From Solirubrobacteraceae bacterium (GTDB lineage Bacteria > Actinomycetota > Thermoleophilia > Solirubrobacterales > Solirubrobacteraceae), in the NCBI GenBank assembly GCA_030447505.1, contig JAUJOT010000004.1, positions 1 to 64,000 on the forward strand: a stretch of DNA of 64,000 nt, in the 5' to 3' direction. Positions 363 to 64,000 of the stretch are shown piece by piece (positions within the stretch are counted from its first letter, which is position 1; every line of letters starts with the position of its first letter). The notes under the pieces were generated by a model that was given only the letters and a program-made list of their open reading frames with translations, searched no databases and had not been told where the DNA came from. Made by a program: the position numbers and the translations under genes.

Positions 363-1853
363 CTACCGAAGCACGCGGAACATGGCTCGCCTGGGCGGGG
401 CCTGGTTGCCCGCCGCGTCACGCGCGATCGCCACGAGCCGGTAGCGCCCGGGCTTCAGGCGCCGTCCGTTGAGCCGCCCGTTGAAGCGCAGCGTGTTGTT
501 ACCGGCCCTGGCGTTCTGGCGAAGCGTCCCGCGGATCCTGATCCAGCGGATCCTGCCGCGGAGCCTGACGCGGCGCTCGACCTTGAAGGTCACCCTCGCG
601 GGTTCCGAGAGCCTGTAGCGGACGGTGGCGGTGCGCCCGCGGCGCAGGTTGCCGGCGCGCAGGCGCTGAAGCTGTGGCACGACGACGTCTCGGGCGGAAC
701 TGCCCGCGGCACCGCCACCGCCGCCGACGCCGCCACCGCCGCCGGCACCACCACCGCCGCCGCCGCCGGCGCTCCTGTCGACGTGCTCGCAGACGTCCCT
801 TCCGGAGCCCGGGATCTGATCTCCAGCGTCGAGCACCGCGGAATCCTCGCCCGGGCCGCATGCCACCGTGTCATCGCTGCCGTCACGGGCCGCGATCGTG
901 TCGCGACCGCTCGCACAGTCGCTGGGGATGCAGATCTGCACCTTGTCGCCGTGCAACGTGTCGATTCCCGCTCCGCCGTCGACCGTGTCGTTTCCGTCCC
1001 CGCCCTCGATCGTGTCCTGGCCGTCCTCGCCGAACGTGCGGTCGTCTCCGTTGTGGCCGAACAGCGAGTCTTCGCCGGCCCCGCCGTGCAGCGTGTCGTC
1101 GCCGTCCCACCCGTCGAGCCAGTTCGCGGCGCCGCTGCCGCTGATCGTGTCGGCGCCGTTTCCGCCGCGCAGCTGCTCGACGTCGAGGCCGACGTCGTCC
1201 GCCTCACCGGCCGCGCCGTCGTTGGCGATCCCGTCGATGCTGATGCTCAACGGCTCCGTGCGGCCGGCGTAGTCGAGAAAGTCCTTGCCAGGGCCGCCGA
1301 CGTAGACGTCGGTCCCTCCCGTCGACACCGGATTGGTGGGCGACAGGTTGCCGAAACCCTCGAGGAAGTCATCGCCGTCGCCGCCGTCCAGCCTGTCGTT
1401 GCCTTCGCCGCCGAACAGCGCGTCGTTGCCCGGGCCACCGTTGATGCTGTCCGCGCCGCCGCCACCGTGGAGCACGGTCTCGTTGCCGGCGCCGCCGTTG
1501 ATCGTCGACGGCCCCTCCCAGTCGAACAGCGCGTCGTCGCGATCGCCGAGGTTGACGACAACCGAGGCGGGCGCGTCGCATTCGACGGTGCGAAGGCCGT
1601 CGGCCGCGCAGCGATCGGCCGGAAAGGCGGTGATCGAGGCGTCGCCGGCCTCCTGTACGTCGATGCACGGAGCCGCGCGCGTGCCGCACGCGAAGTCGGC
1701 TGTGCCGAGCGTCAACGAGACGTTGTTCGTCTCGCCCGCGCCGGCGTCGTAGGTCAGGACGTCGCCTGTGAAGCCGACGGTGGCCGCGTGCGCCGGAGCC
1801 GCCAGCGCGAGCGCCGCAGCGCCAACCATCACAGAGATCCATCGTCTGGGCAT
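363..1853 (-). CDS. Secreted RTX (calcium-binding repeat) protein
   Basis: A 496-residue exported protein. Residues 1-23 form a signal peptide ending APAHA. From about residue 115 to 330 there are many nonapeptides of the GGxGxDxL type (for example GGEGNDRLDGGDGDDFLEG), the hemolysin-type calcium-binding repeat that folds into a parallel beta roll. A glycine-rich linker near 365-392 leads to a ~105-residue Arg-rich C-terminal domain resembling the Ig-like tails on secreted proteins of this lineage. An AGGAG stretch just upstream supports the ATG start. No enzymatic domain is visible, so it is probably a structural or adhesive surface protein. It is divergent from the GntR gene. Confidence 0.85.
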   Translation of the reverse strand: MPRRWISVMVGAAALALAAPAHAATVGFTGDVLTYDAGAGETNNVSLTLGTADFACGTRAAPCIDVQEAGDASITAFPADRCAADGLRTVECDAPASVVVNLGDRDDALFDWEGPSTINGGAGNETVLHGGGGADSINGGPGNDALFGGEGNDRLDGGDGDDFLEGFGNLSPTNPVSTGGTDVYVGGPGKDFLDYAGRTEPLSISIDGIANDGAAGEADDVGLDVEQLRGGNGADTISGSGAANWLDGWDGDDTLHGGAGEDSLFGHNGDDRTFGEDGQDTIEGGDGNDTVDGGAGIDTLHGDKVQICIPSDCASGRDTIAARDGSDDTVACGPGEDSAVLDAGDQIPGSGRDVCEHVDRSAGGGGGGGAGGGGGVGGGGGAAGSSARDVVVPQLQRLRAGNLRRGRTATVRYRLSEPARVTFKVERRVRLRGRIRWIRIRGTLRQNARAGNNTLRFNGRLNGRRLKPGRYRLVAIARDAAGNQAPPRRAMFRVLR

Positions 1854-19624: not shown

Positions 19625-19915
19625 TTAGGCGTCGAGCACGCGCAGCGAGGCGCCCAGCAGATCGGGGATCGGGCGTGACATCCCCAGCGAGCGCGAGAAC
19701 CGCATCAGCACGCGGTGCTGCGCCGGCGTGCCGAGCAGCTGCGACCGCGCGCGCGATGTCCGCCACCGCCGACCACCAGCCGCGCGCCGTACACGACGCC
19801 GCTCCGGGTGCACGGCCTTGCCGCCGCCGCGCCGCTGCGAGCCCGCCAGCACTGCCGCGACCGCGTAGCCAGCGGCGTCGACGGCGAGCCGGCCGGGGAG
19901 CCCGAAGACCGGCGC
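19625..19915 (-). pseudogene. Frameshifted remnant of an unidentified enzyme-like protein
   Basis: Leftward, three pieces line up as one protein if two single-base shifts are allowed: DAAGYAVAAVLAGSQRRGGGKAVHP, then SGVVYGARLVVGGGGHRAR in the next frame, then back to LLGTPAQHRVLMRFSRSLG with MSRPIPDLLGASLRVLDA and a stop. The pattern recalls an actinobacterial family with a VHPxGVV-RFSRSLGLP-PDLLGLALR layout (catalase-related or so-called phosphodiesterase proteins), but I cannot name it firmly. Its N-terminal part and a start are missing. Bases 19916-20062 hold nothing recognisable. Confidence 0.4.
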
Positions 19916-20062
19916 GCGCGTTGTCACCGATGCGCGGCACCCGCGCGCCGATACACGACGGCCGTTGCCTGCGCACGCTGAAAGGAACCGCGAGCTGCCG
20001 TGAACGCGGTCGCATCCAGCGGCGCTGCGCACCACAATCGATCCGCCGGGCCGGCGCCGCTC

Positions 20063-20938
20063 CTACCCGCGGAGGATCTCGACCGCGATCGCCGCGACCT
20101 GCGTCGGCGTGCGCCCGACGCGAACCCCGACCGCTTCGAGCGCGTCGATCTTCGCCTGCCCGCCGCCGCTGGAGCCCGACACGATCGCACCCGCGTGGCC
20201 CATCGTCCTGCCGGGCGGCGCGGTCAGTCCGGCGATGTAGCCGACGACCGGCTTGGAGACGTGCTCGGCGATGAAGGTGGCGGCTTCCTCCTCCGCCGAG
20301 CCGCCGATCTCGCCGCTCATGACGATCAGCTCGGTCTCCGGATCGGCTTCGAAGAGGGCGATGATGTCGACGAACGAGGAGCCCGGGACCGGGTCGCCGC
20401 CGATGCCGACGATCGTCGAGTTGCCAAAGCCGCTCTGCGCCAGCTCGTTGCCGATCTGATAGGTGAGCGTCCCCGATCGCGAGACGACGCCGACGTTGCC
20501 GGGCTTGAAGAACGCGGCCGGGATGATCCCGACGTTGGCCTTGCCCGGCGACAGCACCCCAGGGCAGTTCGGGCCGACGAGGCGCACGTCGGGGTTGCGC
20601 TTGAGGACGTTGAAGACCATCAGCTCGTCGTGCGCCGGGATGCCCTCGGTGATCGCGATGATCGTCGCGATGCCCGCATCCTCGGCCTCGAGGATCGAGT
20701 CGGCGGCAAAGCGGGGCGGGACGAAGATCATCGCGGTGTTGGCGTCGGCCGCCGCGACGGCCTCACGAAAGGTGTTGAAGACCGGCACGCCCTCGACGTC
20801 CTGGGCGCCCTTGCCGGGCGTGACGCCGGCCACGACGTTCGTGCCGTAGCGGCGGTTGTTGATCGCGTGGTAGCTGCCCTCGCGGCCGGTCAGGCCCGAG
20901 ACCGCGAGGCGCGTGTCCTCGCCGACGAGGATGCTCAT
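20063..20938 (-). CDS. sucD: Succinyl-CoA synthetase alpha subunit
   Basis: A 291-residue TCA-cycle subunit that carries the phospho-histidine and the CoA-binding Rossmann domain. GLTGREGSYHAINNRRYGT, FVPPRFAADSILEAEDAG and GPNCPGVLSPGKANVGI are standard; the active His lies in GRTMGHAGAIVSG (~residue 245). ATG 20938 overlaps the last stop of the mini-ORF chain. Compared with sucD in most genomes, which follows sucC within a few bases, it is separated from sucC by a 236-bp tandem repeat. Confidence 0.96.
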   Translation of the reverse strand: MSILVGEDTRLAVSGLTGREGSYHAINNRRYGTNVVAGVTPGKGAQDVEGVPVFNTFREAVAAADANTAMIFVPPRFAADSILEAEDAGIATIIAITEGIPAHDELMVFNVLKRNPDVRLVGPNCPGVLSPGKANVGIIPAAFFKPGNVGVVSRSGTLTYQIGNELAQSGFGNSTIVGIGGDPVPGSSFVDIIALFEADPETELIVMSGEIGGSAEEEAATFIAEHVSKPVVGYIAGLTAPPGRTMGHAGAIVSGSSGGGQAKIDALEAVGVRVGRTPTQVAAIAVEILRG

Positions 20939-21170
20939 CGCGAGGACCGGCCTTGCGGCTCGACGCGGGCGGCGGTCGAGCAATGGCGCGCTGTCATCGC
21001 GAGGACCGGCCTTGCGGCTCGACGCGGGCGGCGGTCGAGCAATGGCGCGCTGTCATCGCGAGGACCGGCCTTGCGGCTCGACGCGGGCGGCGGTCGAGCA
21101 ATGGCGCGCTGTCATCGCGAGGACCGGCCTTGCGGCTCGACGCGGGCGCCGCCCGAGCAATGACGCGCTG
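20935..21170. repeat. Four tandem 59-bp repeats between sucC and sucD
   Basis: Units begin at 20935, 20994, 21053 and 21112. The first three are identical; the fourth (next to sucC) differs at four bases. Each unit contains GCTCGAC and GTCGAGC as 7-bp arms around a 10-base loop (degraded to 5 bp in the divergent unit), so the mRNA could form a row of hairpins. There are no unique spacers between units, so it is not a CRISPR array. Identical copies imply recent expansion by slippage or unequal crossover. Confidence 0.97.
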
Positions 21171-21174
21171 TCAT
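20935..21174 (-). other. Chain of four 20-codon mini-ORFs linked by ATGA overlaps
   Basis: On the coding strand of sucCD each 59-bp unit is an open frame of ATG, 19 further codons and TGA (63 nt), and each start overlaps the previous stop by four bases. The first ATG (21174) overlaps the sucC stop and the last TGA (20935-20937) overlaps the sucD ATG (20938). The frames run 21174-21112, 21115-21053, 21056-20994 and 20997-20935. Peptides read MTARHC, then SGGAR or STAAR, then VEPQGRSSR. The repeats thus keep stop-start coupling unbroken. Whether peptides accumulate is unknown. Confidence 0.75.
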
Positions 21175-22322
21175 CCCGACTCTCCCCGCGCGAGCGCCAC
21201 GACGCGCGCGGCCGCGCCGTCCATCGTCGCCTCGGCGTGGACGTTCGGCAGCTTCGCGTCGGCGAGCAGGCTGCGCGCCTCGACGTCGTTCGTCCCGTCG
21301 AGCCGGACGACGAACGGCACGGTCGGCTGGAGGATTCCGTACGCCTCGATCAGCCCCCTGGCAACCTCGTCGCAGCGCGTGATCCCGCCGAAGACGTTGA
21401 ACAGGACGGCCTTGACGTTGGGGTTGGAGAGGATCACCTCGACCGAAGCGACGATCGCCTCGGCCTTCGCGCCGCCGCCGGCGTCGAGGAAGTTCGCAGG
21501 CGCCCCGCCGGCGTGTGCGACGACGTCGAGCGTCGACATGACGAGGCCGGCGCCGTTGCCGAAGATCCCGATGTCCCCGTCGAGCTTGACGTACGTCAGC
21601 CCGCGCTCCCTGGCCATCGCCTCCTGCGGGTCGACGTCGGCGTCGTCGTCGAGCGTCGCGTTGTCGGGGTGGCGGAAGATCGCGTTGTCGTCGAGCGTGA
21701 CCTTCGCGTCGAGTGCGACGACCTCGCGGTCGGGGGTGACGACGAGCGGGTTGATCTCGACGAGCGTCGCGTCCTCCCTGACGAAGGCCTCGTAGATCGC
21801 CGCCAGCATGTCTCCGACCGGACGGACGACGCCGGCGTCGACACCCGCCTCGTACGCCAGGCGCCGCGCGTGGAAGGGGTGAAAGCCGACGAGCGGGTCG
21901 ACGTGCAGCGTCGCGAGCGCCTCGGGGTGCTCGGCCGCGACCTGCTCGATCTCGATCCCGCCCTGCGTCGACAGCATGACGAGCGGCGCCTTGGCCGAGC
22001 GGTCGAGGACGACCGCCGCGTAGTACTCCGACTGGATCTCCGACGCCCGCTGGAGCCACAGCTCGCGCACCGTGTGGCCGCGGATGTCCATCCCGAGAAT
22101 GCTCGTCGCGTGCTCGCGGACCTCGTCGATCGACGCGGCGATCCTGATGCCGCCGGCCTTGCCGCGGCCGCCGCTCTTCACCTGCGCCTTGATGACGATC
22201 GGAAAGCCGATCTGCTCCGCGGCCGCGACCGCGGCGTCGACCGTCGTTGCCTCACTGCCCGGAAGCTGAGCCACGCCGTGACGGGCCAGAACCTGCTTTC
22301 CCCTGTACTCGAGAAGGTCCAT
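21171..22322 (-). CDS. sucC: Succinyl-CoA synthetase beta subunit
   Basis: A 383-residue ATP-grasp subunit. MDLLEYRGKQVLARHGV is the conserved N-terminus, so ATG 22322 is preferred over ATG 22337, which would add five residues. IVIKAQVKSGGRGKAGG, LVEINPLVVTPD and FNVFGGITRCDEVARG are nucleotide-grip and subunit-interface motifs. With sucD it forms the TCA-cycle enzyme that couples succinyl-CoA cleavage to NTP formation; it also receives succinyl-CoA from the methylmalonyl-CoA mutase at 55.5-57.1 kb. The TGA stop overlaps the first repeat mini-ORF. Confidence 0.96.
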   Translation of the reverse strand: MDLLEYRGKQVLARHGVAQLPGSEATTVDAAVAAAEQIGFPIVIKAQVKSGGRGKAGGIRIAASIDEVREHATSILGMDIRGHTVRELWLQRASEIQSEYYAAVVLDRSAKAPLVMLSTQGGIEIEQVAAEHPEALATLHVDPLVGFHPFHARRLAYEAGVDAGVVRPVGDMLAAIYEAFVREDATLVEINPLVVTPDREVVALDAKVTLDDNAIFRHPDNATLDDDADVDPQEAMARERGLTYVKLDGDIGIFGNGAGLVMSTLDVVAHAGGAPANFLDAGGGAKAEAIVASVEVILSNPNVKAVLFNVFGGITRCDEVARGLIEAYGILQPTVPFVVRLDGTNDVEARSLLADAKLPNVHAEATMDGAAARVVALARGESG

Positions 22323-22400
22323 CCGCCGCGCCACCATAGTTCAGGCGGCCCGGGGCGCGCCGGTGCTCGCGCCGGCGAAGCTCCTATGATGGCGCCCCTC

Positions 22401-23078
22401 ATGGCGCTTCCCAAGCAGATCTCGCTGGTCACCTTCGATGTCTACGGCACGCTGATCGACTGGGAACAGGGGATCGTCGATGCCTTCCAGAAGGAGGCCG
22501 CACGAGACGGCTTCACGATCGATCGCGACGAGCTGATCACGAACTTCCACGAGATCGAGCGCCAGATCGAGGCCGGCTCCTACGAGCTGTACGCCGAGGT
22601 GCTGCGCCGCACGGCAGTCGAGATCTCAAAGCGCCTGGAGTGGCCGCTCGAGCCCTCGCGCTCGGGCTTTTTGCCCGACAGCGTCCAGCGCTGGCCGCCC
22701 TTCAAGGAGACCAACACGCAGCTCGCGAAGGCCACCAAGAAGTACAAGACGGGCCTGATCTCGAACATCGACGACAAGCTGCTCGGCCAGACCCGGCGCC
22801 ACATCCCGCACGACTTCGACCTCGTCGTGACCGCCCAGCAGGTGCGCTCCTACAAGCCCGACATGGCGCACTTCACGGAGTGCGCGCGGCGGATGGGCAC
22901 GAAGAAGGGCTGGGTGCACGTGTCGTCGAGCTACTACCACGACGTCGAGCCCTGCGTGAAGAACAAGATCCCCGTGATCTGGGTCAACCGCGGCAGGGAG
23001 ACGCTCGAGCCCGGCCAGAAGAAGCCGACCGCCGAGGTGAGGAACCTCCTCGAGGCGGTCAAGCTGCTCGGCATCTAG
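22401..23078 (+). CDS. HAD-superfamily hydrolase (haloacid dehalogenase type II-like)
   Basis: About 225 residues. The nucleophile motif is FDVYGTLIDWEQG (~residue 11), where the second position of the usual DxD is Tyr, as in L-2-haloacid dehalogenases. GLISNIDDKLLG is motif II and SYKPDMAHF contains the motif III Lys; VHVSSSYYHDVEPC lies in the motif IV region. In-frame ATGs at 22386, 22389 and 22401 are possible; 22401 begins MALPKQISLVTFD. It heads a same-strand trio with the metallo-hydrolase and VOC genes. Substrate unknown. Confidence 0.82.
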   Translation: MALPKQISLVTFDVYGTLIDWEQGIVDAFQKEAARDGFTIDRDELITNFHEIERQIEAGSYELYAEVLRRTAVEISKRLEWPLEPSRSGFLPDSVQRWPPFKETNTQLAKATKKYKTGLISNIDDKLLGQTRRHIPHDFDLVVTAQQVRSYKPDMAHFTECARRMGTKKGWVHVSSSYYHDVEPCVKNKIPVIWVNRGRETLEPGQKKPTAEVRNLLEAVKLLGI

Positions 23079-30280: not shown

Positions 30281-30326
30281 TCGTCCTACCGTGGAGCACA
30301 TGATCGTCCTACCGTGGAGCACATGA
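30281..30326 (+). repeat. 23-bp perfect tandem duplication over the htrA start region
   Basis: The block 30281-30303 is repeated exactly at 30304-30326. It carries the GGAG ribosome site and the ATGA. The second copy supplies the real start of the protease at 30323. TTGACA at 30272-30277 just before it could be a -35 element, although I find no convincing -10. Confidence 0.95.
30300..30326 (+). CDS. Coupled 8-residue leader mini-ORF before htrA
   Basis: The first copy of the duplicated start reads ATG ATC GTC CTA CCG TGG AGC ACA TGA (MIVLPWST), preceded by its own GGAG. Its stop overlaps the protease ATG as ATGA. Translation of the mini-ORF would deliver ribosomes to the second start. It may have no product function. 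Confidence 0.45.
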   Translation: MIVLPWST

Positions 30327-63184: not shown

Positions 63185-63958
63185 GTGGCCTACCGCTACC
63201 TGTTCGAGCAGATGGTCCGTCGCGAGCTGCGCCAGAAGTACAAGGGCTCGGCGCTCGGCGTGCTCTGGTACCTCATCAACCCGCTCGTGCTGATGGGCGC
63301 CTACTACCTCATGTTCGGCGTGATCTTCCCGGCGCCGTCGGAGGACGACTATCCGCTGTTCCTGCTCGTCGGGCTCGTCGTGTGGGTCTTCTTCAGCCAG
63401 GCCGTGCTGAGCGCCGCGCCGTCGCTGCTGGACCAGGGCGCGCTCGTGCGCAAGGCGCGCTTCCCGCGCGAGGCGATCCCGGCGTCGGTCGTCACGGTGC
63501 AGCTCGTCACCTTCCTCGCGCTGCTCGCGCTGCTGACGCCGATCACGATCGCGATCCGCGGCACGGCCGACCTCGCGCTGCTGGCGCTGCCGCTGATCCT
63601 CGCGTGCCTGTTCGCGTTCGTGCTCGGCTTCGCGCTGGCGGTCAGCGTGCTGCACGCCTACTTCCGCGACGTCGCGCCGATCCTGTCGGCTGCGCTGCTG
63701 CCGTGGTTCTTCCTGTCGCCGATCTTCTTCGACCCCTCGCACCTGGACCGCTTCAGCGACGAGACCGCGGCGCTGTTCGTCCTGGAGTGGGTCAATCCGG
63801 TGGCGCCCTTCATCGTCGCGATCCGCGACGTGATCTACGGCGGAGCGCTGCCCGCGCTGCCGGTCCTGCTGTACGTCGGGGTCGCGGCCGCGCTCGTGCT
63901 GGCCGGCGGCATGGCGCTGTTTCGCCGGATGCAGGGCGAGCTGGCGGTGGTCGTGTGA
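63185..63958 (+). CDS. ABC-2 polysaccharide export permease (TagG/RfbA-like)
   Basis: A 257-residue permease with six helices. FEQMVRRELRQKYKGSALGVLWYLINPLV at the N-terminus and PWFFLSPIFFDPS with EWVNPVAPFIVAIRDVIY near the C-terminus are hallmarks of O-antigen/teichoic acid exporter permeases. GTG 63185 is the start, 35 bases after the xylanase. The ATPase partner is expected just beyond the window; 63959-64000 holds no recognisable start of it. Confidence 0.9.
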   Translation: MAYRYLFEQMVRRELRQKYKGSALGVLWYLINPLVLMGAYYLMFGVIFPAPSEDDYPLFLLVGLVVWVFFSQAVLSAAPSLLDQGALVRKARFPREAIPASVVTVQLVTFLALLALLTPITIAIRGTADLALLALPLILACLFAFVLGFALAVSVLHAYFRDVAPILSAALLPWFFLSPIFFDPSHLDRFSDETAALFVLEWVNPVAPFIVAIRDVIYGGALPALPVLLYVGVAAALVLAGGMALFRRMQGELAVVV

Positions 63959-64000
63959 GATCGCGCCACTGCCCGACCGTCGCTGCGCCGGCGGCGAAAG

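What the first reader, a model, noticed from the sequence alone, without database searches (positions are those of the whole stretch)
20935..21174. Four ATGA-linked 20-codon mini-ORFs made by a 59-bp tandem repeat between sucC and sucD
The sequence shows 59-bp units at 20935, 20994, 21053 and 21112. Read on the coding strand each unit is ATG plus 19 codons plus TGA, and each start overlaps the preceding stop by four bases. The chain begins on the sucC stop and ends on the sucD ATG, so a ribosome could pass through six stop-start junctions. A 59-bp period (63-nt frame minus 4) is exactly what keeps the chain unbroken when units are added or lost. Each unit also holds a 7-bp-arm hairpin, reduced in the divergent unit. 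Inference: copy number may tune the SucD:SucC ratio, or the element is a selfish repeat tolerated because it preserves coupling.
Basis: partly seen in the sequence, partly recalled or inferred. Interest (0 to 1): 0.86.

Follow-up and report, generated by a model that had tools for sequence, protein, structure and literature searches.

The report
Mobile mini-genes slotted between coupled genes
The four short repeats between two enzyme genes are copies of a dispersed DNA element, about 56 in this bacterium, that sits where one gene's stop meets the next gene's start and is itself a tiny reading frame, so the two neighbours stay linked; similar elements are known from mycobacteria.

Summary
In detail: four 59-bp units (three identical) lie between sucC and sucD on the minus strand, each a 20-codon frame chained by ATGA overlaps; there are five stop-start junctions, not six. 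It is not a local curiosity. I analysed 56 copies at 50 loci of this 3.84-Mb genome. 51 of 56 start on DTGA and end on ATGA; downstream genes include rpsE, nuoD/F/I/L, atpG, hisB and gatA. 0 of 29 relatives read carry the sucC-sucD insert (24 overlap directly by ATGA/GTGA), and four further loci lack it in most congeners with a readable orthologue. Copy number at two shared sites differs between species (2 versus 1). Distribution is patchy: 7 of 146 genomes of its family. Best reading: a MIRU-like interspersed mini-cistron that inserts at start/stop tetranucleotides, brings a ribosome-binding-like 3' end, and is tolerated because coupling survives. Translation was not tested, sequence kinship to mycobacterial MIRUs could not be tested, and the mobilising machinery is unknown.

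The parts
21171..22337 (-). sucC, succinate-CoA ligase subunit beta; its stop TGA (21173-21171) is overlapped by the first mini-ORF start
   Evidence: NF001913, 484 bits, cut-off 370
21112..21174 (-). unit 1 (divergent): 63-nt frame MTARHCSGGARVEPQGRSSR*, starts on the sucC stop as ATGA
21053..21115 (-). unit 2: 63-nt frame MTARHCSTAARVEPQGRSSR*
20994..21056 (-). unit 3: identical to unit 2
20935..20997 (-). unit 4: identical to unit 2; its final ATGA carries the sucD start
20063..20938 (-). sucD, succinate-CoA ligase subunit alpha, begins ATGAGCATCCTC
   Evidence: NF004230, 400.9 bits, cut-off 336
63955..64000 (+). another copy of the same family, cut by the window end (contig C11:63955-64017), GTGA start, coding-like frames on both sides
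   Evidence: L023

Best explanation
The array is four tandem copies of a short interspersed element, a 59-bp unit that with its overlap forms a 63-nt mini-cistron. The family has spread through this genome by insertion at the DTGA/ATGA tetranucleotide of a gene start, usually where the upstream gene also stops. Inserted there, it leaves a DTGA at each end: the upstream stop overlaps the mini-ORF start, and the mini-ORF stop overlaps the downstream start. A terminating ribosome could therefore re-initiate on the mini-ORF and again on the next gene. The 3' end carries a Shine-Dalgarno-like stretch (about GGCAGGT, ending 7 nt before the ATG) in place of the native one, which now stands before the mini-ORF. 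Because 59 = 63-4, recombination between units would add or remove whole coupled cistrons. Shown: anatomy, dispersal, empty sites, and copy-number difference at orthologous sites. Inferred: that the mini-ORFs are translated, that coupling persists, that spread is by transposition in trans, and that the element is mainly tolerated rather than beneficial.
For: 26 places by DNA search and 59 at E<=0.01 by model in the same genome. 51 of 56 analysed copies have DTGA start and ATGA end; 46 of these 51 are exactly 63 nt; 48 of the 49 whose length is a multiple of three have no internal stop. 38 of 50 loci have coding-like frames on both sides against 10 of 728 DTGA sites in the window. Ten downstream genes are, by best NCBIfam match, operon genes: RpsE, NuoD, AtpG, NuoF, NuoI, NuoL, HisB, a response regulator, GatA, SufS (several below cut-off because the pieces are truncated). 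Empty sites: sucC-sucD, 0 of 29 relatives with insert, gap difference 236 = 4 x 59; sucC2-sucD2, 0 of 12 readable relatives; the next junction is filled in G005 and empty in G000, G001, G003, G004; three more loci. Copy number 2 versus 1 at two shared sites. Binding to the anti-SD at the 3' end averages -6.6 kcal/mol against -3.2 at random sites. No sense-frame stop in 730 middle codons, 10.4 expected from shuffles.
Against: 12 of 50 loci fail the both-sides test. One has no coupled gene upstream (L014); three lack the 5' end (L162, L164, L165); four have an upstream frame of lower third-position GC (L012, L148, L153, L159). The other four are TGATG overlaps (L029, L032) or have a short downstream piece (L018; L021, where the fetched piece ends). 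The open-frame argument is weaker than the shuffles suggest: the other sense frames hold only 4 and 8 stops in 657 codons each, and two antisense frames hold none; against frame 0 the two sense frames give Fisher p 0.05 and 0.002. No parent element was seen, but I ran no search for a transposase. No expression data. Both end blocks stay more similar than the middle in shared copies, which a purely selfish reading does not require. The SD-like stretch of the window units (-5.7) is weaker than the native one before unit 1 (-8.2).
Confidence: 0.87

Rival explanations
1. The array is a copy-number rheostat for SucC:SucD stoichiometry, kept by selection at this operon.
For: Each added unit would add a termination-reinitiation step and lower downstream yield if reinitiation is partial (inference). 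Unit number varies at other sites between species.
Against: 0 of 29 relatives read have any unit here. Copies occur at about 50 loci, so the position is not special. The two subunits form a complex in equal numbers (established knowledge).
Confidence: 0.08
2. The mini-ORF is a sensory leader peptide or attenuator that regulates the downstream gene.
For: The N-terminal block MTAR[HR][CR]S is recurrent, and in the 5' block second codon positions differ least (8/77 against 20/66 and 25/66).
Against: The middle is unconserved with flat divergence over codon positions (34/99, 39/88, 44/99). Position 6 is often Cys or Arg, the flanking functions are diverse, and no conserved RNA structure was found.
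Confidence: 0.05
3. The element acts in transcription, as a promoter for the downstream gene; this is reported for the MIRU-bearing senX3-regX3 spacer (PMC4213456, passage).
For: Only the analogy.
Against: No sigma-70-like site in window 20800-21400 (0 found, 0.0 expected by shuffles, so a weak test). It does not explain the DTGA/ATGA ends or the in-frame length.
Confidence: 0.05
4. The tandem number, or the element, is an assembly artefact.
For: Three units are identical and the assembly is a 13-contig draft; reads were not available.
Against: Full-length copies occur in three separately assembled named genomes, and 46 of 50 loci here hold a single unit. Only the exact number four could be wrong.
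Confidence: 0.05

Closest known systems
MIRU (mycobacterial interspersed repetitive units; Supply et al. 1997, not held, recalled; summarised in PMC12548453, passages read)
   Same: Short interspersed repeats carrying an ORF; they appear mobile and insert at start codons so that the ORF is coupled with -4 spacing (PMC12548453). 41 locations in H37Rv, 12 of them variable in unit number (PMC2734929, passage). Unit lengths 77 and 53 bp (PMC4213456, passage) are, like 59, two more than a multiple of three. A MIRU-VNTR spacer, rnc-fpg1, is 279-358 bp in the tuberculosis complex and 1-54 bp in the other species listed (PMC2734929, section 16).
   Different: Another class of Actinomycetota (Thermoleophilia), unit of 59 bp, single units the rule (46 of 50 loci). 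Sequence kinship not tested, since no MIRU letters were held.
BRE (beta-proteobacterial repeat element, PMC3110155, passages read)
   Same: About 90-bp dispersed repeat, in tandem at some loci with species-variable number.
   Different: No stop/start coupling of an internal ORF is described in the passages read.
Enterobacterial RU-1/2/3 elements (PMC2759123, abstract and outline read)
   Same: Small mobile sequences of 103-168 bp with open reading frames.
   Different: The abstract calls them MITE-like and describes fusion into annotated genes, not separate cistrons overlapping stop and start.

Membership tests
MIRU | Interspersed repeat at tens of chromosomal loci | tested here: met
   56 analysed copies at 50 loci
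MIRU | Internal ORF whose start and stop overlap the neighbouring stop and start (-4) | tested here: met
   51 of 56 copies with DTGA start and ATGA end; 46 of 51 exactly 63 nt; 38 of 50 loci coding-like on both sides
MIRU | Target is the start/stop tetranucleotide, empty in relatives | tested here: met
   Five loci of this genome and one of G005 with empty orthologous junctions
MIRU | Tandem arrays with variable unit number | tested here: met
   Arrays of 4, 2, 2, 2 in this genome; 2 versus 1 at two shared sites between species. Variation within a species not tested.
MIRU | No dyad symmetry (recalled from Supply et al. 1997) | tested here: inconclusive
RNAalifold: 4 pairs, 0 covarying.
MIRU | Sequence of one of the mycobacterial MIRU types | tested here: inconclusive
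MIRU | Found in mycobacteria | tested here: not met
   A stringent 5' pattern over named genomes gives full-length copies in three Actinomycetota MAGs only, two of them named or placed in Solirubrobacteraceae; a diverged relative could be missed
MITE | Terminal inverted repeats and a parent transposase element | tested here: inconclusive
   35 of 39 5'-end matches are listed copies. Of the other 4, two lie in one 60-bp repeat and one looks like a decayed copy; one was not looked at. No search for a parent element or for inverted termini was run.

The most novel reading that the evidence does not exclude
Stop/start-targeting mini-cistrons are a general, convergently evolved class of bacterial mobile element: a family outside mycobacteria has colonised dozens of coupled junctions, including ribosomal-protein, NADH dehydrogenase and ATP synthase operons. 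It moves by an unknown trans-acting machinery that reads the stop-start tetranucleotide, and it changes unit number in steps that never break coupling.
Probability: 0.45. Interest if true: 0.8.

Novelty: new variant of a known kind. Interest (0 to 1): 0.64.

Why it matters
MIRU typing is widely used, yet the passages read here leave open how MIRUs spread and what their mini-ORFs do. A second family, with empty and filled sites in close relatives, separates what the architecture demands (DTGA ends, length a multiple of three, an SD-like 3' end) from sequence that is free to vary. It gives a natural mutagenesis series on translational coupling and a handle for finding the mobilising machinery. 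It also warns annotators: such copies turn clean gene overlaps into apparent intergenic regions and can add C-terminal extensions.

Tried and rejected
Hairpin as the functional core: rejected as a family feature. RNAalifold found 4 pairs without covariation. Of ten copies folded, nine have z-scores between -0.5 and 1.7 and one has -2.1. A CAUYGC:GCGAUG pairing that would hide the start codon is possible in 45 of 73 copies (shuffled 45.1), so nothing can be said.

Known RNA family: no Rfam match up to E 1 for window 19800-22600. Plasmid records: no match. Promoter scan: none.

My first idea that the copy behind the sucC paralogue in G000 and the one near it in G005 were one shared site was wrong (my note still says so): G005's copy lies one junction further, after sucD2. 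A first script looking for a SucC motif in the paralogues found none in 14 stretches and was replaced by tblastn.

The genome contigs pattern scan returned 31 stretches; 13 hold full-length members in three MAGs, and the other 18 give weak partial matches (at most 22.9 bits) read as chance. Three of 59 model places (C2:2227, C12:22025, C12:328592) were left out of the 56 copies as partial, while four others with a damaged end were kept. Of the 56, 12 were left out of the 44 distinct sequences (2 identical window units, 10 of other length or ends). The 29 relatives' sequences there come from an ungapped 63-nt profile scan that favours intact copies. The last codon before the stop was not counted; one own copy (L025) has a stop there. 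The thresholds for coding-like frames (60 codons, third-position GC 0.85) were mine, written into the script that made the count.

Literature: ten searches, of which I saw listings of at most 20 rows each; none of the rows shown names such an element in Solirubrobacteraceae. Supply et al. 1997 is not held.

Full report
Observation. The window holds four 59-bp units on the minus strand at 20935-21174. With the 4-nt overlap each is a 63-nt frame of 20 codons plus TGA; units 2-4 are identical and unit 1 differs. The first start overlaps the sucC stop and the last stop overlaps the sucD start; both enzymes pass NCBIfam cut-offs. There are five junctions, not six. Rfam and plasmid records give nothing.

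A dispersed family. A DNA search of the window's own genome (3.84 Mb, 13 contigs) gives 26 places. An alignment of 29 copies gave a sequence-only model, R1, that finds 59 places at E<=0.01. I analysed 56 copies at 50 loci. Of the 56, 26 begin exactly (A/G)TGACAGCGCG, 44 begin DTGAC, and 45 end CGCGATGA. 51 of 56 have DTGA at the start and ATGA at the end (start letter A in 39, G in 10, T in 2). Of these 51, 46 are 63 nt, two 66, one 60 and two 62; 48 of the 49 that are a multiple of three have no internal stop. A pattern for the 5' end matches 39 times against 0 for the reversed control, and 35 of the 39 are copies in my list. One other copy is cut by the window end (63955-64000).

Position. 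Taking arrays as one locus, 38 of 50 loci have coding-like frames (at least 60 codons, third-position GC at least 0.85) both up to the first TGA and from the last ATG; 48 of 50 have it downstream and 40 of 50 upstream. Among DTGA sites in the window 10 of 728 pass the same test. The 12 failing loci are L014 (no coupled gene upstream; its site is shared with G003), L162, L164 and L165 (5' end lost), L012, L148, L153 and L159 (lower third-position GC upstream), L029 and L032 (TGATG overlap instead), L018 (short downstream frame) and the second copy of L021 (fetched piece ends).

Empty sites. SucC was found in 60 of 61 genomes searched, this one included; the tool returned 30 loci and I read the 29 relatives. 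None has an insert: 24 join sucC and sucD by the direct -4 overlap, 4 by TGATG, 1 by a 4-nt gap, and this genome's spacer is longer by 236 = 4 x 59. The paralogous sucC2-sucD2 pair holds one unit in this genome and none in the 12 relatives whose junction could be read, of 13 fetched. One junction further, G005 holds a unit where this genome has a plain GTGA overlap and G001, G003 and G004 a plain ATGA; G006 gave no hit. Three more loci lack the insert in congeners' orthologues: before a copper-ATPase-like gene (two units here; six congeners empty), nuoC-nuoD (five congeners empty, no match in G002), and kinase-response regulator (five empty). The names copper-ATPase, nuoC and kinase are by eye. 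The exception is G002 at the last locus, where a copy has merged into the upstream frame as a C-terminal extension. Precise presence and absence is shown; gain rather than repeated loss is the simpler reading.

Shared sites and copy number. Of this genome's loci, 13 share a site with one of the 30 relatives' copies compared, by matching flanks on both sides. At two of them this genome has two units and the relatives one (L010 versus G005; L011 versus G005, G004 and G002). In 11 shared pairs (some reusing one copy) 53 of 209 positions differ in the 5' block, 117 of 286 in the middle and 24 of 110 in the 3' block. The middle shows no codon-position bias (34/99, 39/88, 44/99); in the 5' block second positions differ least (20/66, 8/77, 25/66).

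Open frame. In 73 distinct copies the middle has 0 stops in 730 frame-0 codons; shuffles expect 10.4, and none of 1000 reached 0. Two results temper this: the other sense frames hold only 4 and 8 stops in 657 codons each, and the antisense frames 0, 0 and 5. Against frame 0 the sense frames give Fisher p 0.05 and 0.002. So the frame is probably kept while the peptide is free to change.

Translation signals. The 3' end pairs with the anti-Shine-Dalgarno at -6.6 kcal/mol on average (73 copies; 40 at -6 or below) against -3.2 for 400 random window stretches (71 at -6 or below). At sucC the native SD-like stretch (-8.2) now precedes unit 1, and sucD follows a unit with -5.7. No conserved structure was found.

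Distribution. In the named genome collection a stringent 5' pattern hit 31 stretches; 13 are full-length and come from three MAGs: Actinomycetota 0707_bin21 (7), Solirubrobacteraceae C24_concoct.bin.52 (4) and Candidatus Siliceabacter maunaloa (2) (taxonomy). By coordinates and scores these appear to be G002, G005 and G011 (inference). R1 at E<=1e-5 matches 7 of 146 genomes of the family: 36, 25, 10, 5 and 1 matches in five of the seven genomes listed for the genus, none in the other two, and 2 and 1 in two other genera. It matches 2 of 396 genomes across the phylum, this genome and one congener. That the family is Solirubrobacteraceae is inferred from these names.

Mechanism. The anatomy fits an element that inserts at DTGA, leaves DTGA at both ends, and behaves as an extra coupled cistron. 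A recent review says of MIRUs that they appear mobile, insert at start codons and couple their ORF with -4 spacing, which likely lets them insert with minimal impact (PMC12548453, passages). That description fits here. Not tested: translation, effect on yield, the mobiliser, and sequence kinship to MIRUs. MIRUs between senX3 and regX3 are also reported to drive independent expression of regX3 (PMC4213456, passage), so a transcriptional role is a live rival.

Verdict. A MIRU-like mini-cistron family outside mycobacteria, real and well supported, and not seen described in the listings of ten literature searches. The sucC-sucD array is one of its sites, not a dedicated control device. On checking I corrected facts but found none that required a change of odds; the open-frame evidence and the parent-element test are now stated more weakly.

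Noticed in passing
window 30281-30326 (+): A perfect 23-bp tandem duplication ends on the ATGA (30323) of a trypsin/HtrA-like frame (function by eye). It makes an 8-codon mini-ORF (30300-30326) overlapping that start by ATGA; 23, like 59, is two more than a multiple of three. A possible de novo route to coupled mini-cistrons.
   Followed up: partly
G000:C3:413798, 415934, 420807, 423115: Four family copies sit within one stretch of nuo genes (before NuoD, NuoF, NuoI, NuoL), an uneven clustering in one operon.
   Followed up: partly
L235 (G002, orthologue of the L016 junction): A copy has fused in frame to the upstream gene as a C-terminal extension while still overlapping the downstream start.
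   Followed up: yes
G000:C4:43837-43958 (L011): The first of two units before rpsE has a different 5' end (ATGAACCTGCC) but the family's middle and 3' end, a possible clue to how the 5' boundary is set.
   Followed up: no
sucC2-sucD2-next gene, G000 C13:7996 and G005 C1:20499: The two copies occupy neighbouring junctions about 1 kb apart in two species yet differ at only 5 of 63 positions, while the median between distinct 63-nt copies of this genome is 22, as if one had hopped locally.
   Followed up: partly
window 712-1430: Several 27-bp and 18-bp tandem repeats, perhaps a repetitive protein gene.
   Followed up: no
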